Assembly: GCF_019352895.1 (NCBI RefSeq)
Contig: NZ_JAAAFX010000004.1
Coordinates: 62,001 to 126,000 of the forward strand
DNA from: Variovorax boronicumulans
Lineage (GTDB): Bacteria; Pseudomonadota; Gammaproteobacteria; Burkholderiales; Burkholderiaceae_C
Reading direction: 5' to 3'
DNA: 64,000 nucleotides
Below the pieces are notes generated by a model. That model made no database searches. It saw nothing but the letters and a program-made list of their open reading frames with translations, and was not told the DNA's origin. Shown piece after piece: positions 10,012 through 61,047 of this stretch (its first letter is position 1; each line of letters begins with the position of its first letter). The position numbers and the translations under genes were made by a program.

Positions 10012-10497
10012 TTAAACGCCAGGACATCCTGCGGGAGCGTACTTGGACGGTGCAGTGGTGCCGCAGGTCCAGGCGCCAGTTGCGGTACGCGTCCACGTAA
10101 GAGTCTTGGCAGTGGCAGCCTTAAGGGTTTCAGCAGCGCCACCAGCAAAAGTCGCAACGATGGTGCCAGTCTCCGAAAGTGCCGCGGAATTGGTCGTTGT
10201 CGTCAGAGCGGTGCCGGCGGTCGACACGAAGGGCACCGAATAGCTGGCGATGCTGGAACTGGTAGCACCCAGATCACAAGCGCCTGCAATAGTCTTGCCT
10301 TCGTTCAAGCATGTCTCGTAGGCGGTTTTCAATGCGCCGGTTTCACCCATCACCCGAGCCACCTGCGACTTCGCCACGTAGGTTTGATACTGCGGAAGCG
10401 CCACTGCAGCCAGAATACCGATGATCGCGACAACGATCATCAGTTCGATGAGGGTGAAGCCGGCTTGTGCGCGGCGAGCGATGGAACGACGGTTCAT
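10012..10497 (-). CDS. Type IV major pilin encoded in the prophage
   Basis: A 161-residue type IVa prepilin starting [13 protein letters not shown], with AGGAG upstream. The prepilin peptidase site AG^FTLIELM, with Glu at mature position 5, and the hydrophobic helix [20 protein letters not shown] are complete. The C-terminal Cys pair in [19 protein letters not shown] would close the D-region disulphide loop. The gene stands alone between cI and the rightward operator region, with no other pilus gene nearby, and is transcribed towards cI. In lambda this position holds the exclusion genes rexAB, so it is probably a moron expressed in the lysogen that alters host pili. Function inferred. Confidence 0.88.
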
Positions 10498-10646
10498 GGA
10501 AAACTCCTGGGTTGTTGAACCGGAGACCCTCCCCGGCATGCCAATTTAACTGCAGCTTGCGTGCCAGTTCCTCGAACACCGAAAGTGTGCCGAATAGTTC
10601 ACAATCACTTCAGTCCATGACATGCAACAACGTGTGACATGCCCTC

Positions 10647-13340: not shown

Positions 13341-13526
13341 ATGTCTTTTCCCATCGTCTCCATCGACGCCGTGAAGGAGGCCGCCCACGCGGCAGCCGAG
13401 CGCGGCGAATCACTCAACGACTCCTGCCCTTGGCCCTTCTACAGCGATGCCGGCCGCCAGTTCAAGCAGTTCTTCATCCTCCGCAAGGCCGCACTCCAAG
13501 CAGCGGCCGCAGAAAGCCTCTCATGA
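13341..13526 (+). CDS. Hypothetical protein, 61 aa
   Basis: A 61-residue protein (MSFPIVSIDAVKEAAHAAAE, then RGESLNDSCPWPFYSDAGRQ) with a predicted helix at each end and an aromatic centre. It lies four bases after the previous stop and overlaps the next start (ATGA). No family recognised. Confidence 0.5.
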   Translation: MSFPIVSIDAVKEAAHAAAERGESLNDSCPWPFYSDAGRQFKQFFILRKAALQAAAAESLS

Positions 13527-14191
13527 GTTTCATGGTCACCGCCACCGGCATCGAGTACCACTTCACGGGCCCCGACTCGGTCACCGAGAAGGGCCGCCAC
13601 TTCCGCATCGAAGACATCGCGCACCACCTGGCGCAGCTCAACCGCTTCACCGGCGCGTGCAAGCGCCCGTACAGCGTGGCCGAACACAGCCTGCTGTGCA
13701 GCGAGATCGCGCAACGCGGCAAGGCATCGGTTCACGTGCAGCTCGCCGCCCTGATGCACGACGCCCACGAGGCCTACACCGCCGACCTGAGCAGCCCAGC
13801 GAAGCGCGCCGTGAACCAGCGCAGCGTCGCTGCCGGCGGCACCAACGCATGGACCGTGTTCGAGACCGAGCACGAGAAGGCCCTGCGCTCGCACTTCGGC
13901 ATCTCCACCGCCTTCACTTCGTATCGCGGCCTGCTGCGCGACATCGACCTGCGCGCGCTGGCAACCGAGCGCCGCGACCTGACCGCCTGGCGCGACCTGA
14001 CGCATTCGGGGTGGGAGATCCTCGGCGACGGCGCTGTGCTCGCGAGCGACCGCATCGAATCCATCGACTGGCTCTCGCTGGACACGTCCGAGCGCGAGGC
14101 CATGACGTGGAAGGACTGGCGCGCGGCGTTCCTCGACCGCTTCGCACTGCTGACCGCCAGCATCGTGGCCAGCCGCGGGAGCCGCGCATGA
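13523..14191 (+). CDS. HD-domain phosphohydrolase (YfbR-like)
   Basis: A 222-residue metal-dependent HD phosphohydrolase. His and Asp ligands are visible in CKRPYSVAEHSLLCSE (first His) and AALMHDAHEAYTADLSSPAK (HD pair), with a later D in VLASDRIESID. Enzymes of this kind act as 5'-nucleotidases on deoxynucleoside monophosphates, so it may shape the nucleotide pool during infection. It starts in an ATGA overlap at 13,523 and ends in another with the following gene. Substrate is inferred from the family. Confidence 0.8.
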   Translation: MSFMVTATGIEYHFTGPDSVTEKGRHFRIEDIAHHLAQLNRFTGACKRPYSVAEHSLLCSEIAQRGKASVHVQLAALMHDAHEAYTADLSSPAKRAVNQRSVAAGGTNAWTVFETEHEKALRSHFGISTAFTSYRGLLRDIDLRALATERRDLTAWRDLTHSGWEILGDGAVLASDRIESIDWLSLDTSEREAMTWKDWRAAFLDRFALLTASIVASRGSRA

Positions 14192-14652: not shown

Positions 14653-15255
14653 GTGCAAATCATCATCACCGGCGACACCCTTCACCTGCATCTGCCCACC
14701 GGCGGCACGCAGGGCGCCATCAGCATCGACACGCGCGCCGCGGCAGCAGCACCGCCCGCGCCCAGCCCCAAGGCCACTGCGCTGCAGCCGCCTGCGGCGG
14801 GCGAGTACTGGGCCGACCAGGGTGGCTACTTCATCTGCACGCAGCCCGCGCTGCTCGGACTGCCCGCGCGCCACCTGATCTTCGGCGACCTTGAGCACGA
14901 CGAGCTTGCCTATGGCCCGTACGAGGACATCGAGGGCGCACGCAGCCAGCTCGACGGCGCAGCCAACACGCGCGCCCTGTTGGCCGCCAGCGATGAGCAC
15001 CAGGCCGCCAAGTGGGCCGCCACGTACACCGCCGACGGCCACACCGATTTCCACCTGCCGAGCCGCGTCGATCTGCTGATGGCCTACGTGTGCGCACCGC
15101 AGCTTTTCAAGAAGAGCGGCTGGTATTGGTCAAGCACGCAGACCTCGCGCTACAACGCCTTCGTCCAGGCCTTCGAGGACGGCGGCAGCAACTGGGACGA
15201 CAAGGACGACCGGCATCGTGCTCGGGCCTGCCGCTGGATTCCCTTGACCGCTTGA
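14653..15255 (+). CDS. DGR variable protein 1 (DUF1566/C-lectin-like)
   Basis: A 200-residue diversified target protein starting with GTG at 14,653 (CAGGAG upstream). Residues 1-50 are an N-terminal beta segment and a Pro/Ala linker. Residues about 55-200 form a DUF1566-type domain related to the C-type lectin fold: GEYWADQGGYFICT, GHTDFHLPSRVDLLMAY, GWYWSSTQTSRYNAF and the closing RARACRWIPL. The last 35 codons are the variable repeat, ending in the mutagenesis-homing region. The domain is about 60 percent similar by eye to variable protein 3 but quite different from protein 2. No signal peptide. It should display a variable ligand-binding surface; the ligand is unknown. Confidence 0.9.
   Translation: MQIIITGDTLHLHLPTGGTQGAISIDTRAAAAAPPAPSPKATALQPPAAGEYWADQGGYFICTQPALLGLPARHLIFGDLEHDELAYGPYEDIEGARSQLDGAANTRALLAASDEHQAAKWAATYTADGHTDFHLPSRVDLLMAYVCAPQLFKKSGWYWSSTQTSRYNAFVQAFEDGGSNWDDKDDRHRARACRWIPLTA
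15136..15234 (+). repeat. DGR variable repeat 1 (VR1)
   Basis: Aligned without gaps to the template at 17,157-17,255, VR1 differs at 8 of 99 bases and all 8 are template adenines. Variable codons read T, Y, N, A, D, G, N, D and D where the template has AAC or GAC. The 3' end (CATCGTGCTCGGGCCTGCCG) is identical in all copies and is the homing region. One base is inserted relative to the template just after. Confidence 0.93.
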
Positions 15256-15270
15256 ACCCTTCACCCCTTC

Positions 15271-15302
15271 ACCGACGTGAGCGTCGGTCGACGAATTTTT
15301 TT
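15271..15302 (+). promoter_or_regulatory. Hairpin 30 bases after VR1
   Basis: A perfect 7-bp inverted repeat (ACCGACG with CGTCGGT) with a 4-base TGAG loop, followed after six bases by a T-run. It lies 30 bases after the end of VR1 homology, and the same spacing holds at the other two variable repeats. In the Bordetella phage DGR a hairpin downstream of VR is needed for efficient homing, so this is probably a DGR target-recognition hairpin that may also act as an attenuator. Confidence 0.65.
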
Positions 15303-15319
15303 ACAGAACGGAGCTCCTC

Positions 15320-15832
15320 ATGATCGCATCCACCTTCACGCTGCCGGCCTTCGGCACCGTCATCGCAGGCCAAGGCGGCATCTTCGCCGCCATCCTGCGC
15401 GCACCGCTGATCGACGGCGTCGAGCAGCCGCCCTTCGCCCTGATCGCGTCGGACGCAGCCGAAGGCGAGGTCAAGTGTGCATGGGGCGAGTACGGCAAGG
15501 ACGTGCCGGGCACTAGCAGCCGCACCGATGGCCAAGCCAACACCGATGCGATGGTGAAGGCCGAATGCCCCGCTGCGCTGCAGCTGCGCGCGCTTGCCAT
15601 CGGCGGCCACACCGATTGGTATCTGCCCAGCCTGGGCGAACTCAACTCTGCCGCAGCCAATGTGCCCGAGATCTTCAGCAAAGACGGCTGGTATTGGACC
15701 AGCACGCAGCGCTCGCGCTACGGCGCCTTCGTCCAGGACTTCGAGGACGGCGACAGCGGCTGGCTCGACAAGGACAGCCGGCATCGTGCTCGGGCCTGCC
15801 GCCGGATTCAGCTTGACGCCTTGAACGCTTGA
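15320..15832 (+). CDS. DGR variable protein 2 (DUF1566/C-lectin-like)
   Basis: A 170-residue diversified protein starting at the ATG at 15,320, with GGAG upstream. It has the short DUF1566 layout: GQGGIFAAILRAP, a central SRTDGQANTDAMVKAECPAA, GHTDWYLPSLGELNSAAANV, GWYWTSTQRSRYGAF and RARACRRIQL at the end. It lacks the long N-terminal part of proteins 1 and 3 and resembles them closely only from GHTDW onward, so it belongs to a different branch that shares the same variable cassette. Its last conserved Trp is Arg (CRRI instead of CRWI). Confidence 0.9.
   Translation: MIASTFTLPAFGTVIAGQGGIFAAILRAPLIDGVEQPPFALIASDAAEGEVKCAWGEYGKDVPGTSSRTDGQANTDAMVKAECPAALQLRALAIGGHTDWYLPSLGELNSAAANVPEIFSKDGWYWTSTQRSRYGAFVQDFEDGDSGWLDKDSRHRARACRRIQLDALNA
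15704..15802 (+). repeat. DGR variable repeat 2 (VR2)
   Basis: VR2 differs from the template at 12 of 99 bases, all template adenines. Variable codons read R, Y, G, D, D, D, G, L and S. The inserted base after the homing region is C here and T in VR1 and VR3. Confidence 0.93.
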
Positions 15833-15839
15833 ACCCTTC

Positions 15840-15870
15840 ACCGACGTGCGCGTCGGTCGACGAATTTTTT
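15840..15870 (+). promoter_or_regulatory. Hairpin 31 bases after VR2
   Basis: The same 7-bp stem as after VR1 (ACCGACG with CGTCGGT) with loop TGCG, then a run of six T. The spacing from the end of VR2 homology is 31 bases. Confidence 0.65.
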
Positions 15871-15882
15871 CAAAGGACCAAC

Positions 15883-16554
15883 ATGACCAGCCTGGCAACA
15901 ACCTCCACAAGCCTCACCCTCCATCGCGCGACCGCAGCCTTCGAGAACTGGGAAAACAACTTCCGCGCCAACCCCGAGGTCTTCATGACCCAAGAGGAGA
16001 CGGCAGCGATGGCCGTAGCCACCCTTTCCGAAGGCCGCGGCATCCACTTCATGGCACTGCTGCGCGACCTGCCTGCGCTGGAGCTGCCGCCTGCCGCCGG
16101 CGAGATCTGGCCCGGCCAAGGCGGCCGCTTCATCTGCACGATCGCAGCGTCCGCAGGCCTGCCAGCGCGCCACCTGGTGTTCGGCGTCGACGAGGCCGAG
16201 GAACTCGCCTTCGGCCCCTACGAAAGCATCGCAGGCGCCGACAGCCACCTCGACGGTTCCGCGAACACCAAGGCGCTGATCGCCAGCGGCAAGGAGCACC
16301 CCGCCGCGGCCTGGGCTGCTGCGTACACGGCCGACGGCCACAGCGACTTCCACCTGCCGAGCCGTCACGACCTCCTGCTCGCATACATCCACGCGAAGGA
16401 GCACTTCGACACGGATGACTGGTATTGGTCGAGCACGCAGGGCTCGCGCGGCCTCGCCTTCGTCCAGGACTTCGAGGACGGCAACAGCTACTGGGCCGAC
16501 AAGGACTACCGGCATCGTGCTCGGGCCTGCCGCTGGATTCCCTTGACCGCTTGA
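15883..16554 (+). CDS. DGR variable protein 3 (DUF1566/C-lectin-like)
   Basis: A 223-residue diversified protein starting at the ATG at 15,883, with AAGGA upstream. Residues 1-65 are a distinct helical N-terminal segment (LHRATAAFENWENNFRANPE, EETAAMAVATLSEGRGIHFM). Residues about 70-223 form the DUF1566-type domain with GQGGRFICT, LPARHLVFGVDEAEELAFGP, GHSDFHLPSRHDLLLAY, DWYWSSTQGSRGLAF and RARACRWIPL. The domain is a clear paralogue of protein 1, so the pair arose by duplication. No signal peptide or coiled-coil trimerisation domain typical of tail fibres is seen. Confidence 0.9.
   Translation: MTSLATTSTSLTLHRATAAFENWENNFRANPEVFMTQEETAAMAVATLSEGRGIHFMALLRDLPALELPPAAGEIWPGQGGRFICTIAASAGLPARHLVFGVDEAEELAFGPYESIAGADSHLDGSANTKALIASGKEHPAAAWAAAYTADGHSDFHLPSRHDLLLAYIHAKEHFDTDDWYWSSTQGSRGLAFVQDFEDGNSYWADKDYRHRARACRWIPLTA
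16435..16533 (+). repeat. DGR variable repeat 3 (VR3)
   Basis: VR3 differs from the template at 11 of 99 bases, all template adenines. Variable codons read G, G, L, D, D, N, Y, A and Y. The codon aligned to template 17,199-17,201 is Asp in all three targets. Confidence 0.93.
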
Positions 16555-16569
16555 ACCCTTCACCCCTTC

Positions 16570-16601
16570 ACCGGTGAGCAGCACCGGTCAAAGTTTTTTT
16601 T
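16570..16601 (+). promoter_or_regulatory. Hairpin 30 bases after VR3
   Basis: A 7-bp stem of different sequence (ACCGGTG with CACCGGT) with a 5-base loop and a run of eight T, 30 bases after VR3. The structure and spacing are kept although the stem sequence has changed, which argues for selection on the hairpin. Confidence 0.65.
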
Positions 16602-16606
16602 AAGCC

Positions 16607-16981
16607 ATGGCCCTCTACAGCGATCTCCCCATCTACAAGCACGGTTGCGACCTGCTCTCGCTCTCTGTCGACGTGCAGACGCAGATGCCGCGCATGTTCA
16701 AGCGCTCGCTCGGCGAGAAGATTCACGACCTGTGCGTCGAGATGCTCGAGGCCATGGCCATGGCAAATGCCACCCGCGGCGAAGCGCGCATGGAGCAGAT
16801 CGAGAAGCTGCTCAAGTACCTGCGCGCCGCCACCGCGATGCTGCGCATCAGCCATGACAAACGACTGATCTCGCCCAAGCTCTGGGCGCAGTCCGTCGAG
16901 CTGCTTGACGCTGTCGGCTCCCAAGCTGGCGGCTGGCGCAAGCACACGCTCGGTACCCTTTCCGCAGCGCCTGCTGCATGA
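16607..16981 (+). CDS. avd: DGR accessory variability determinant (Avd)
   Basis: A 124-residue four-helix-bundle protein of the Avd family: it opens MALYSDLPIYKHGCDLLSLS, then VDVQTQMPRMFKRSLGEKIH, and continues with helices around EMLEAMAMANATRGEARMEQ and LLKYLRAATAMLRISHDKRL. Avd forms a basic barrel-shaped pentamer that binds the reverse transcriptase and template RNA and is needed for mutagenic homing. Here it lies between the last target gene and the template repeat, the usual DGR order. Its stop overlaps an ATG of an open frame that runs through the template into the RT gene. Confidence 0.92.
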   Translation: MALYSDLPIYKHGCDLLSLSVDVQTQMPRMFKRSLGEKIHDLCVEMLEAMAMANATRGEARMEQIEKLLKYLRAATAMLRISHDKRLISPKLWAQSVELLDAVGSQAGGWRKHTLGTLSAAPAA

Positions 16982-17156
16982 CGGTCAAGGCCATCATGCC
17001 CGTGCGTTTTATGAATCCGGTCAAGCCGCTGGGCCACAAGCCCACCGCTATGCGCACCACGGATACCGGCGAGCAGCAGCTCGATCTATGGTCCGGCGCA
17101 GTTCCCGAGCCGATCGGCGCAAGCCTTCGACCCGGCGACGTAGATAGCTCGACATC

Positions 17157-17255
17157 ACGCAGAACTCGCGCAACAACGCCTTCGTCCAGGACTTCGAGAA
17201 CGGCAACAGCAACTGGAACGACAAGGACAACCGGCATCGTGCTCGGGCCTGCCGC
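17157..17255 (+). repeat. DGR template repeat (TR)
   Basis: The 99-base template read in the frame of the variable repeats carries eight AAC codons (at 17,163, 17,172, 17,175, 17,199, 17,205, 17,211, 17,217 and 17,229). This codon can become any of 15 amino acids by adenine mutation and cannot become a stop. The 31 differences seen in the three variable repeats all fall on its adenines. Homology ends just upstream, where ATC at 17,154 faces AGC in every target. The downstream homing-region copy lacks one base relative to the targets. Confidence 0.95.
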
Positions 17256-17265
17256 GGATTCATCC

Positions 17266-17290
17266 GCCTCCCTCGTGGAGGCCCCTTTTT
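17266..17290 (+). terminator. Hairpin plus T-run between TR and RT
   Basis: A 6-bp stem (GCCTCC with GGAGGC), a 5-base loop and a run of five T, ending three bases before the RT start. It could end the template RNA. The only ribosome-binding site of the RT gene (GGAGG at 17,277) is part of the 3' arm, so folding would hide it. Confidence 0.6.
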
Positions 17291-17292
17291 CA

Positions 17293-18393
17293 ATGGCCGA
17301 GCTGGTGCAAGCCTGGCTCGACTGCCGGCGCAACAAGCGCCAGAGCGCGAGCGCGCAGGCCTTCGAGGCCGACGCCGAGCGCAACCTCTGCGCACTGCGC
17401 GCCGAGATGCTCGGCGGCAGCTACCAGCCCGGCCGCAGCATCTGCTTCGTGGTCACGCGCCCGAAGCCACGCGAGGTGTGGGCCGCTGACTTCCGCGATC
17501 GCATCGTGCACCACCTGCTCTACAACAAGGTCGCACCGCGCTTTCACGCCAGCTTCATCGCTGCGAGCTGCGCGTGCATCCCCGGCCGCGGCACGCTCTA
17601 CGCCGCGCAGCACCTGGCGCACGACATCCGCTCGATCACGCAGAACTGGAGCCGCCCGGCCTTCTACCTGAAGTGCGACCTCGCGAACTTCTTCGTCGCG
17701 ATCGACAAGCAGGTGCTGGCCCAACAGCTGGCCGCGCGCATCACCGAGCCATGGTGGCTCGCCCTTGCGCGCCTGGTGCTGCTGCATGACCCCCGCGCGA
17801 ATGTCGACGTGCGCAGCTCGCCCGCCCTGCTCGCACAGGTCGCGCCGCACAAGAGCCTATTCAACGCCCCGACAGACGTGGGCCTGCCGATCGGCAACCT
17901 GAGCAGCCAGTTCTTTGCCAACGTCTACCTCGACGCGCTCGACCAGTTCGCGAAGCATCAGATCCGCGCTCGGCGCTACGTGCGCTACGTCGATGACTTC
18001 ATCCTGCTGCACGAGTCAGCGCAGTGGCTCAACGACGCGCACGCACGCATCAACGCCTTCCTGCCCGAGCGCCTGCATGCGCGCCTGAATCCGAAGAAGA
18101 CCGTGCTGCAGCCCATCGCGCGCGGCATCGACTTTGTGGGCCACGTCATCAAGCCCTGGCAGCACACCACTCGACCGAGAACGATGCGCACCGCGCTGCG
18201 CCGCCTCGAGGTCATGCCCGCAGCCGACGTGCACACGGCCGGCAACAGCTATCTCGGGCTGGTGCGCCAGACCGAGAACAGCCACCAGGACCAGGTCGCC
18301 ATCGCGCGCGCGCTTCTGAAGCGCGGGCATGCGGTAGATGGCGGCCTGACTCGCGCGTTTCGGAGCCGACAAGCAGCGCCCACGAGCAAATAG
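17293..18393 (+). CDS. DGR reverse transcriptase
   Basis: A 366-residue retroelement-type reverse transcriptase. Motif A is YLKCDLANFF (catalytic Asp about 129), the DGR hallmark is GLPIGNLSSQ (about 197-206), and the active site is RYVDDFILL (YVDD at 232-235). It continues with LNPKKTVLQPIARGIDFVGH in the thumb region. It lacks maturase and RNase H domains, as DGR enzymes do. It copies the template RNA with errors at adenines into the variable repeats. The start is set at the ATG at 17,293 by homology length; the frame is open for 105 codons upstream, through the template, but in a frame that gives only low-complexity Thr/Ser/Arg sequence there. Confidence 0.95.
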   Translation: MAELVQAWLDCRRNKRQSASAQAFEADAERNLCALRAEMLGGSYQPGRSICFVVTRPKPREVWAADFRDRIVHHLLYNKVAPRFHASFIAASCACIPGRGTLYAAQHLAHDIRSITQNWSRPAFYLKCDLANFFVAIDKQVLAQQLAARITEPWWLALARLVLLHDPRANVDVRSSPALLAQVAPHKSLFNAPTDVGLPIGNLSSQFFANVYLDALDQFAKHQIRARRYVRYVDDFILLHESAQWLNDAHARINAFLPERLHARLNPKKTVLQPIARGIDFVGHVIKPWQHTTRPRTMRTALRRLEVMPAADVHTAGNSYLGLVRQTENSHQDQVAIARALLKRGHAVDGGLTRAFRSRQAAPTSK

Positions 18394-21734: not shown

Positions 21735-22520
21735 ATGAAAATCGCCACCTGGAACGTCAATTCGCTCACCGCCCGCCTGCAGCACGTGCTCGACTGGCTG
21801 ATCGCCAACCCTGTCGACGTGCTCTGCCTGCAGGAGCTCAAGATGAGCGACGACAAGTTCCCGCTCGACGTGCTGCAGTCGGCCGGCTACCAGGCCGCCT
21901 ACTTCGGCCAGAAAACCTACAACGGCGTGGCGATCCTGAGCCGCGCGCCGGTGAGCAACGTGGCGAAGAACATCGGCGGCTTCACCGACGAGCATTCGCG
22001 CGTGATCAGCGCCACCGTCGACACCGCCCACGGCCCGCTGCGCGTCGTCAATGGCTACTTCGTCAACGGCCAGGCGCCGGGCAGCGACAAGTTCGCCTAC
22101 AAGATGCGCTGGCTCAGCGCCCTGCGCGACTGGCTCGCCGCCGAGATGGCGGCGCATCCCGACCTCGTGCTGCTGGGCGACTTCAACATCGTGCTCGAGG
22201 ACCGCGACAGCTTCGACCCGATCGGCCTGAAGGAAACCATCCACCACACGACCGAGGAACGCGATCATTTCCGCGCACTGCTCGCGCTCGGGCTGACCGA
22301 TGCGTTCCGCCTGTTCGAGCAGCCCGAGAAGAGCTTCTCTTGGTGGGACTACCGCATGCTGGGCTACCAGAAGAACCGCGGCCTGCGCATCGATCACATC
22401 CTGGTGAGCGCGCCGCTGGTGCCGCGCGCCGTGGCCTGCAGCATCGACCGCGTGCCGCGCAAGTGGGAGAAGCCCAGCGACCATGCGCCGGTGGTACTGA
22501 CGCTCGACCAGGCGGACTGA
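21735..22520 (+). CDS. xthA: Exodeoxyribonuclease III
   Basis: A 261-residue AP endonuclease/3'-5' exonuclease of the exonuclease III family. Motifs are MKIATWNVNSLTAR with the metal-binding Asn, LCLQELK with the metal Glu, GYFVNGQ, VLLGDFNIVLEDRD (Asp/Asn pair), DYRMLGYQKNRGLRIDHILV and the final SDHAPV with the catalytic Asp-His. It repairs abasic sites. It is the first clear chromosomal gene to the right of the prophage. Confidence 0.95.
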   Translation: MKIATWNVNSLTARLQHVLDWLIANPVDVLCLQELKMSDDKFPLDVLQSAGYQAAYFGQKTYNGVAILSRAPVSNVAKNIGGFTDEHSRVISATVDTAHGPLRVVNGYFVNGQAPGSDKFAYKMRWLSALRDWLAAEMAAHPDLVLLGDFNIVLEDRDSFDPIGLKETIHHTTEERDHFRALLALGLTDAFRLFEQPEKSFSWWDYRMLGYQKNRGLRIDHILVSAPLVPRAVACSIDRVPRKWEKPSDHAPVVLTLDQAD

Positions 22521-59979: not shown

Positions 59980-60366
59980 TGGTGGAGCTGGGGGGATTTG
60001 AACCCCCGTCCGCAAGCCTTCATCGCACAGATCTACATGTTTAGCGGTCTGATTTAGATCTCGCTTCCGGAGTCGCGCAGTCGCACGCTACACCGGACGC
60101 CAGTACCCTATTTTCTTGCCTCGACCCAAGGTACCCGGATCGAGACCAGCCCATGTAATTATCCTTGCAGCCGGGAGGCGTCAGATTGCTCTGTCACCCC
60201 CTTGCCCAGCCCATCGGCCAACTGTTGCAAGGCTCACTGGCAATTAAGCAGCGAGTGCGAAACGTTCGTCGTTTGCAGTTAGTTTTTTTGAATCTGTTTT
60301 ACGAGCGCATTCAGCTCGACATGCACCGCTGCGATTCCGAACCCACGTCGAAACCAGTGCAGCCCC
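59980..60366 (-). ncRNA. ssrA: Transfer-messenger RNA
   Basis: About 387 bases on the minus strand, from GGGGCTGCACTGG at 60,366 to the 3' CCA at 59,980. The ends pair as the tRNA-like acceptor stem, and the T-arm pattern GGGGTTCAAATCCCCCC-like sequence is visible near the 3' end. The internal tag frame (60,247-60,276) encodes ANDERFALAA followed by TAA, the beta-proteobacterial tag. It rescues stalled ribosomes. Confidence 0.95.
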
Positions 60367-60378
60367 AAGCGGCCTATT

Positions 60379-61047
60379 TTAGGCCCTATTCAGCCATTGC
60401 AAGAGCGCCATCGGAGAATCGATGGCGCCATCGGCCTGCCACAGCGCGGCATCGGCCTGTGCGCCCATGTAGCCGTAGGTGGCGGCCACCGTCCGCATGC
60501 CCGCGGCGCGCCCGGCCACGATGTCGCGTTCGTCATCGCCCACGTAGATGCACTGCGCCGGCGCCAGCCCCAGCCGGCGCGCGGCCTCGAACAAGGGTTC
60601 GGGATGCGGCTTGGCGTGCGGCGTGGTGTCGCCGCTCACCACCGCACCGGCGCTGGCGAAGACCGGGATCGAACGGGCCAGGGGATCGGTGAAACGTTTC
60701 GACTTGTTGGTCACGATGCCCCAGGCCAGCCCGCGCCGGGTCAGGCTGTCGATCAGTTCCGCCACCCCGTCGAAGACATGGGTGTTGAGCAGCATCCGGG
60801 CTTCGTAGTTCACGAAAAACTCTTCGCGCAACGCCTCGAAGCCGGGGGATTGCGGCGTGATGTCGAACGCGATGCCCAGCATGCCGCGCGCGCCGGCACC
60901 GGCCATCGGTCGGTAGCGCGCCAGCGGGAGCGAGGGCAGACCGCGGTCGGTGCGCATCTTGTCGGCCGCGGCGCCCAGTTCGGGCGCACTGTCGACCAGC
61001 GTGCCGTCGAGATCGAAGAGCACGGCGCGGAGCATGTCGTCGGCCAT
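60379..61047 (-). CDS. gph: Phosphoglycolate phosphatase-like HAD hydrolase
   Basis: A 222-residue HAD hydrolase. Motif I is AVLFDLDGTLVDSAPELGAA with the nucleophilic Asp, motif II is GIVTNKSKRFTDPLARSIPV, motif III has the Lys in TTPHAKPHPEPLFEAARRLG, and motif IV is IYVGDDERDIVAGRAAGM. It fits the phosphoglycolate phosphatase family, which is often next to ubiG in beta-proteobacteria. Its ATG overlaps the ubiG stop by one base, so the two are translationally coupled. Confidence 0.93.
   Translation of the reverse strand: MADDMLRAVLFDLDGTLVDSAPELGAAADKMRTDRGLPSLPLARYRPMAGAGARGMLGIAFDITPQSPGFEALREEFFVNYEARMLLNTHVFDGVAELIDSLTRRGLAWGIVTNKSKRFTDPLARSIPVFASAGAVVSGDTTPHAKPHPEPLFEAARRLGLAPAQCIYVGDDERDIVAGRAAGMRTVAATYGYMGAQADAALWQADGAIDSPMALLQWLNRA

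What the first reader, a model, noticed from the sequence alone, without database searches (positions are those of the whole stretch)
14653..18393. Prophage DGR with three tandem target genes and one template
Seen in sequence: three consecutive genes end in 99-base repeats that align without gaps to one template upstream of a reverse transcriptase with GLPIGNLSSQ and YVDD motifs, and an Avd gene lies between. VR1, VR2 and VR3 differ from the template at 8, 12 and 11 bases; all 31 differences fall on template adenines and none elsewhere. This is the signature of adenine-directed mutagenic retrohoming. Most characterised DGRs have one target; three in a row fed by one template, each with a different solution, is unusual.
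Basis: partly seen in the sequence, partly recalled or inferred. Interest (0 to 1): 0.95.

Follow-up and report, generated by a model that had tools for sequence, protein, structure and literature searches.

The report
Prophage hypermutator with lassoed template RNA
A dormant virus in this bacterial genome carries one template copy that matches the ends of three neighbouring lectin-like genes everywhere except at 31 adenines, so it likely rewrites all three genes independently, and relatives show that its template RNA is predicted to be tied into a loop by a leader placed on the opposite side from the textbook example.

Summary
One 100-base template repeat (TR, 17156-17255) matches three variable repeats (VRs) ending three tandem genes. 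They differ from it at 8, 12 and 11 bases, all 31 on template adenines. Avd, a DGR-type reverse transcriptase (RT) and C-type-lectin-fold targets complete a diversity-generating retroelement (DGR) in a 38-kb prophage.

"Three targets from one template" is not new. Among 124 related loci with 6 kb or more upstream, 112 have two or more VRs and 30 have three or more; three close together occurs in 7. Multi-VR DGRs are in print. Natural activity in the clade is visible: contigs L187 and L189, identical over 4,321 bases outside the VRs, differ in one of three VRs at 14 adenine sites only.

The less expected part is the RNA. Rfam's RT-15 lies before the RT in 22 of 22 clade loci scanned and ends at the TR start, whereas BPP-1 carries a different RNA after its TR. 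A linker of RT-15, unpaired in Rfam's model, pairs with the TR 3' end, with compensatory changes. The template is therefore predicted to be looped out between two helices at its borders. Function is untested.

The parts
14653..15255 (+). Target gene T1 (GTG start), 200 aa, lectin-fold family protein ending in VR1
   Evidence: phrog_4245 4.9e-22; Lcl_C 26.5 bits, below the curated cut-off of 34.9
15135..15234 (+). VR1: 8 differences from the TR, all on TR adenines
15271..15288 (+). Hairpin (7-bp stem, 4-nt loop) then T-run, 36 nt after VR1: putative homing hairpin
   Evidence: in the clade hairpin plus T-run after 39 of 324 VRs vs 4 of 1620 control stretches
15320..15832 (+). Target gene T2, 170 aa, ending in VR2; AlphaFold2 model pLDDT 95.4, C-type lectin fold
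   Evidence: phrog_4245 4.5e-28; Lcl_C 33.9 bits, just below the cut-off of 34.9
15703..15802 (+). VR2: 12 differences, all on TR adenines
15840..15857 (+). Hairpin (7-bp stem, 4-nt loop) then T-run after VR2
15883..16554 (+). Target gene T3, 223 aa, paralogue of T1, ending in VR3
   Evidence: phrog_4245 1.7e-25; Lcl_C 24.7 bits, below cut-off
16434..16533 (+). VR3: 11 differences, all on TR adenines
16570..16588 (+). Hairpin (7-bp stem of another sequence, 5-nt loop) then T-run after VR3
16607..16981 (+). avd, 124 aa
   Evidence: bAvd PF22296 42.3 bits, cut-off 40; phrog_3206 2.1e-23; NF033474 46.1 bits, below its cut-off of 80
16965..17159 (+). RT-15 RNA (RF03018): structured leader on the 5' side of the TR
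   Evidence: 175.4 bits, 1.4e-42; alignment
17011..17019 (+). Linker of RT-15, unpaired in Rfam's model: 5' strand of the lasso helix
17021..17026 (+). Outer helix of RT-15, 5' strand (3' strand 17147-17152, just before the TR)
17156..17255 (+). Template repeat (TR), 27 adenines
17255..17263 (+). 3' strand of the lasso helix, starting at the last base of the TR
17293..18393 (+). Reverse transcriptase, DGR type (ATG 17293; the frame is also open from ATG 16978 through leader and TR)
   Evidence: RVT_1 1.3e-12, phrog_1423 6.5e-109, PDB 8ub7 4.4e-37
21735..21751 (+). attR: 17-bp core at the 5' end of the exoIII gene; the same 17 bp lie at window position -16560, near an integrase-like ORF

Best explanation
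This is a diversity-generating retroelement of a lambda-like prophage whose single template repeat likely rewrites the ends of three adjacent lectin-fold genes by adenine-mutagenic retrohoming, with its template RNA predicted to be held as a lasso by a structured leader on the 5' side. Shown in sequence: one TR, three VRs that differ only at TR adenines, avd, RT, targets of a lectin-fold family, a hairpin after each VR, RT-15 RNA directly 5' of the TR, and a covarying helix between an RT-15 linker and the TR 3' end. Shown in relatives: one VR of three rewritten while the rest of the locus stayed identical. Inferred: transcription runs through leader and TR, Avd-RT binds RT-15, cDNA starts near the lasso helix at the TR 3' end and stops near the outer helix at the TR 5' end. 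The adenine-mutated cDNA would then replace one VR at a time, guided by TR-VR identity and the downstream hairpin. The targets likely act as small variable binding proteins; what they bind is unknown.
Against: No transcript, cDNA or population reads for this strain. None of 99 other genus genomes searched has the RT at E 1e-40, so activity here is inferred from relatives. Ten of 11 locus pairs with identical backbones and detected VRs have identical VRs, though 8 of these 10 pair a genome with a viral record and are probably the same genome twice; L182/L183 has 12 backbone differences and none in its VRs. The window RNA alone folds no better than shuffles (z -0.57). The lasso could not be anchored in 12 of 113 loci, and its pair 6 is Watson-Crick in only 57 of 101. 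One small RT-15 helix pairs in only 31% of cells. No clear fall in synonymous variation at the RT 5' end. A hairpin with T-run was found after only 39 of 324 clade VRs, and the window's loops (TGAG, TGCG, AGCAG) do not fit the GRNA loop reported for phage DGRs (PMC3240598, passages).
Confidence: 0.85

Rival explanations
1. The DGR core is as described, but RT-15 is not part of the template RNA: it is a separate regulatory RNA, such as an attenuator or translational switch between avd and RT, and the lasso pairing regulates RT translation.
For: The RT frame is open through the whole TR in 115 of 137 loci against 87 and 62 for the other frames, and 69 of 137 have no ATG, GTG or TTG in frame between TR and RT match, so leader structure could act on RT translation. 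In the window a GGAGG lies inside a predicted hairpin before ATG 17293.
Against: The TR borders fall -1 to 7 nt from the outer helix and 0 to 9 nt from the lasso start in 28 loci, which a translation switch would not require. BPP-1 has Rfam's DGR RNA on the other side of its TR.
Confidence: 0.2
2. An inactive relic: the VRs were diversified long ago and are now inherited as ordinary paralogues.
For: No near-identical strain was found to show change in this prophage; most identical-backbone pairs show unchanged VRs.
Against: 0 of 219 non-adenine VR cells differ although the T1/T3 bodies are 72% identical. RT, avd and all three target frames are open. In two relatives' pairs one VR changed at adenines with 0 and 1 other differences.
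Confidence: 0.1
3. Ordinary gene duplication plus positive selection in a lectin loop, without reverse transcription.
For: T1 and T3 are paralogues, and duplication is the published proposal for the origin of multi-VR DGRs (PMC3521204, passages).
Against: A separate template holds the same 100 nt, change is confined to its adenines with all other sites identical, and a DGR-type RT and Avd adjoin it.
Confidence: 0.01
4. The RT belongs to an antiphage defence (DRT) or retron system and the repeats are incidental.
For: 56 PADLOC models hit the RT (generic RT 8.1e-38, RT_UG4 8.7e-23).
Against: NCBIfam Drt2, Drt3a and retron St85 hits are far below their cut-offs (27.6 of 390, 37.1 of 200, 41.3 of 235 bits); phrog_1423 6.5e-109 is stronger; avd and the TR/VR set adjoin the RT.
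Confidence: 0.01

Closest known systems
BPP-1 DGR (Bordetella phage, mtd/avd/TR/brt)
   Same: Order target-avd-TR-RT on one strand, adenine rule, lectin-fold target (recalled for Mtd), hairpin after the VR (PMC3240598, passages)
   Different: One VR is annotated in the stretch fetched; avd abuts the TR (0 nt) and 144 nt lie between TR and brt, holding RF03022 Phage_DGR. Here 174 nt, holding RT-15, lie before the TR and 37 nt after it. BPP-1's target is annotated as tail protein; these genes lie at the lysogeny end of the prophage.
Burkholderia phage Magia and Pseudomonas phage Haboob DGRs
   Same: RT 60-62% identical, RT-15 RNA before the RT, DGR on the same strand as CI-like repressor and integrase
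   Different: Magia's annotators name two possible targets, one of them remote. In Haboob T3 matches one gene.
Polaromonas sp. OV174 (L009) and UViG 2643221495 (L133)
   Same: Three targets in tandem from one TR; outside the VR T2 is 68-74%, T3 71-77% and T1 53-60% identical to the counterparts
   Different: L133 has a fourth VR about 7 kb upstream; target order differs in L009.
Multi-VR cassettes G2/G4 of Yan et al. 2019 and multi-VR DGRs of Schillinger et al. 2012
   Same: Several VRs, usually one TR, G2/G4 more often in Proteobacteria
   Different: The passages and section read describe cassette order, not RNA structure; whether this clade is their G2/G4 branch was not tested.
Lcl C-terminal domain (Legionella adhesin)
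   Different: No collagen-like part in the 170-aa T2; a shared fold shows no shared function.

Membership tests
Diversity-generating retroelement | TR and VR nearly identical, differing at TR adenines | tested here: met
   31 of 31 differences on adenines, three VRs
Diversity-generating retroelement | RT of DGR type beside the TR | tested here: met
   phrog_1423 6.5e-109; PDB 8ub7 4.4e-37 (that 8ub7 is the BPP-1 enzyme is recalled); GLPIGNLSSQ and YVDD in the translation (the motif rule is recalled)
Diversity-generating retroelement | Accessory protein Avd | tested here: met
   bAvd above cut-off, phrog_3206; NF033474 below its cut-off
Diversity-generating retroelement | VR at the 3' end of a lectin-fold target gene | tested here: met
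   VR positions; fold modelled for T2 only
Diversity-generating retroelement | GC-rich hairpin after the VR | tested here: met
   3 of 3 in the window; loops differ from the published GRNA
Diversity-generating retroelement | Mutagenic retrohoming observed | not testable with these tools
   Not in this strain; natural traces in two pairs of relatives
BPP-1-type DGR RNA (RF03022) | Phage_DGR RNA between TR and RT | tested here: not met
   No RF03022 match at gathering score in the window; found in BPP-1 and L098
RT-15 RNA (RF03018) | Covariance model match above gathering score | tested here: met
   175.4 bits vs 82
Tailed temperate prophage | Capsid, portal, terminase, repressor, integrase and att repeats | tested here: met
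   Pfam for head genes, TerL and repressor (the small terminase hit is below its cut-off); 17-bp att repeat, and a relative in which the two flanks lie together. The integrase call rests on my reading of the 422-aa ORF at -16373..-15105, not on a profile.

The most novel reading that the evidence does not exclude
There are at least two mirror-image classes of DGR template RNA. In the BPP-1 class the structured scaffold lies 3' of the template. In this clade Rfam's RT-15 lies 5' of the template and reaches round with a linker to clamp the template's 3' end, so that both borders of the mutable stretch, where cDNA starts and where it stops, are set by two neighbouring helices of one lasso.
Probability: 0.7. 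Interest if true: 0.72.

Novelty: new variant of a known kind. Interest (0 to 1): 0.6.

Why it matters
In the BPP-1 model the 3' spacer recruits the enzyme and primes cDNA (PMC12875486, section 4). A clade that has little room for that spacer and carries a covarying 5' clamp makes the question of how template borders are chosen directly testable, and gives an Rfam RNA named only after its neighbour gene (RT-15) a concrete proposed job. The pair L187/L189 suggests that one template can rewrite one of three targets and leave the other two alone.

Tried and rejected
Rejected: a recent triplication as origin of T1-T3. T2 and T3 are closer to their counterparts in L133 and L009 than to one another. 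T1 is less clear: 60% to L133's T1 over 156 residues, 67% to the window's own T3 over 107.

Rejected: a structured RNA inside the RT 5' end. Third-base identity of same-residue pairs is 0.59 and 0.57 in codons 1-40 against 0.55 overall (113 loci).

Inconclusive: translation of leader and TR as an N-terminal part of the RT. The frame is open through the TR in 115 of 137 loci and closed in 22. Overlap of TR and RT ORF is already in print (PMC3521204 group 3, passages).

Inconclusive: single origin of the three-in-a-row state. The RT tree of 99 loci needs 7 changes for 9 such loci.

Weak first test of the lasso: exact complements of 7 nt or more in 56 of 113 loci against 156 of 2260 shuffled; 6 loci had fewer than 5 nt. 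Searches are the better tests.

First VR count counted the template against itself; one search drops those and two weak segments (L052, L173). The scan penalises non-adenine mismatches, so its 4003 of 9895 A cells against 119 of 22495 other cells is biased; the unbiased evidence is. Target gene calls were often in the wrong frame and are not used; one search repeated them by a motif, and some starts there are still wrong. Hairpins of 7 bp or more: 67 of 324 VRs against 22 control stretches; of 6 bp or more 117 of 324 against 164 of 1620.

AG-context adenines change in 2% of 1494 cells against 62% and 43% for AA and AC. This resembles the low NAG rate for BPP-1 (PMC12875486 section 7), but selection on those codons is not excluded.

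Paper searches on the RNA: 0 papers with all terms; 48 papers, 10 listed, none of the listed on RT-15 and DGRs; 4 papers with DGR and Rfam, listing only; 3; 0 for RF03018. Rfam's source paper was not found in the library, so prior mention is possible.
Full report
Observation. The repeats are real and exact. Without any adenine rule, the repeat finder gives four copies in register. The stretch shared with the template is 100 nt (17156-17255); VR1, VR2 and VR3 differ at 8, 12 and 11 bases, all 31 on template adenines, 16 of the 27 adenines being used. A search of the own genome gives only these places above weak short hits.

Anatomy. T1 14653-15255, T2 15320-15832, T3 15883-16554, avd 16607-16981, RT-15 RNA 16965-17159, TR 17156-17255, RT 17293-18393, all on the plus strand. 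Each target ends in its VR and is followed, 36-37 nt on, by a 7-bp hairpin and a T-run. The stem after VR3 has another sequence than those after VR1 and VR2. Over the clade a hairpin with a T-run follows 39 of 324 VRs against 4 of 1620 random stretches, so it is enriched but was found in a minority.

Setting. The window's first 6 kb carry capsid, protease, portal and terminase genes on the minus strand; a CII-like gene and an S24 repressor follow. The right end abuts exoIII at about 21.7 kb; in a related genome (G200) the two flanks lie within about 165 bases of each other. A 17-bp repeat of the exoIII gene start lies at window position -16560, near a 422-aa ORF that reads as an integrase. The prophage is thus about 38.3 kb, and the DGR lies at its lysogeny end, not in the head and tail block, as in Magia and Haboob.

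How common are several targets? The best 80 genome loci and best 80 viral loci (both lists capped) with RTs 59-83% identical were scanned. Of 124 with at least 6 kb upstream, VR counts are 0: 6, 1: 6, 2: 82, 3: 27, 4: 3. Three within 2.5 kb of the RT: 7 of 124 (10 of all 160: L009, L051, L057, L133, L134, L162, L164, L179, L187, L189). The sets share some records, so these are not independent. Published surveys agree that multi-VR DGRs with one TR are frequent (PMC6642488, passages and section 10; PMC3521204, passages).

Activity in the clade. Twenty-two locus pairs were compared. L187 and L189 have no difference in 4,321 bases outside the VRs, none in VR1 and VR3, and in VR2 14 of 31 adenine sites and 0 of 77 others. 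L168/L169: 14 of 35 adenine sites, 0 of 72 others, 1 of 2,126 outside (one VR covered). Ten further pairs with no outside difference have unchanged VRs; eight of them pair a genome with a viral record and are probably one genome twice. Two more pairs without outside difference have no detected VR. L182/L183 has 12 outside differences and none in the VRs. Seven pairs with more diverged backbones differ mainly at adenine sites (0-2 other sites per VR), except VR1 of L077/L081 (37 of 74 other sites), where the partner has no VR.

The RNA. RT-15 was found in the window and in 21 of 21 further clade loci scanned, in 0 of 5 loci with more distant RTs (L094-L098) and not in the BPP-1 stretch, which has RF03022 between TR and brt. 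In six genome loci the RT-15 end lies 0-8 nt from the TR start. Spacing in BPP-1: avd-TR 0 nt, TR-brt 144 nt; here 174 nt and 37 nt. Over the clade the TR-to-RT-match distance has a median of 28 nt.

The lasso helix. A linker that Rfam's RT-15 model leaves unpaired (17011-17019) is complementary to the TR 3' end (17255-17263). On 28 loci that I chose for spread, out of 113 with distinct RTs and a VR, the full structure pairs 89.8% of cells (80.6% shuffled; at most 38.7% slid), the lasso helix 91.3%, with 4 of its 9 pairs changed on both sides; one small RT-15 helix pairs in only 31%. RNAalifold, given no structure, predicts seven of its pairs; one has G-C 16, U-A 8, C-G 3 and A-U 1. Of the 113 loci, 101 could be anchored: the second pair is Watson-Crick in 101 (U-A 94, C-G 7), the seventh in 94 with four types, the sixth in only 57. 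Cells paired at variable positions are 379 of 505 against 288 (sd 6.3, maximum 307) shuffled; unslid 320 of 404, slid 17 of 303 and 82-164 of 404. Twelve loci lacked the anchor and were not counted. The TR borders fall -1 to 7 nt from the outer helix and 0 to 9 nt from the lasso start in 28 loci. Single-sequence folding also forms the helix, but the total energy is not special (z -0.57).

Mechanism. For BPP-1 the literature has cDNA primed by the 3' spacer at the TR 3' end and stopped by a motif in avd (PMC12875486, section 4). By analogy I infer that RT-15 takes over both jobs here. That is not shown.

Verdict. A genuine DGR; a new member by its targets, a variant by its RNA layout.

Noticed in passing
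10012-10539, minus strand: A type IV pilin gene (PF00114 3.2e-20 plus N-methylation motif) lies inside the prophage next to the repressor; a possible lysogenic-conversion gene that could alter the host's pili.
   Followed up: no
13523-14191: Predicted deoxynucleoside monophosphate phosphatase (phrog_318, 4.4e-40) just upstream of the DGR; could shift dNTP pools during reverse transcription, untested.
   Followed up: no
16978-17292: The RT reading frame is open from an ATG overlapping the avd stop through RT-15 and TR; 69 of 137 related loci have no start codon in frame between TR and RT match, so RT may start in or before the TR there.
   Followed up: partly
clade-wide TRs: Adenines followed by G hardly ever change (2% of 1494 cells) while those followed by A or C change in 62% and 43%; in the window 0 of 15.
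   Followed up: partly
L202, VRs 1536 and 836 bases upstream of the RT: VRs almost identical to the TR: 1 adenine and 1 other change, and 3 adenine and 3 other changes. Idle element, fresh reset or old drift.
   Followed up: no
L131: The nearest RT relative (83%) keeps one target near the RT and two 3.9 and 4.6 kb upstream, so target sets differ between close relatives.
   Followed up: no
59980-60525, minus strand: tmRNA gene (tag ANDERFALAA); the permuted tmRNA model also just passes its cut-off over the neighbouring stretch.
   Followed up: no
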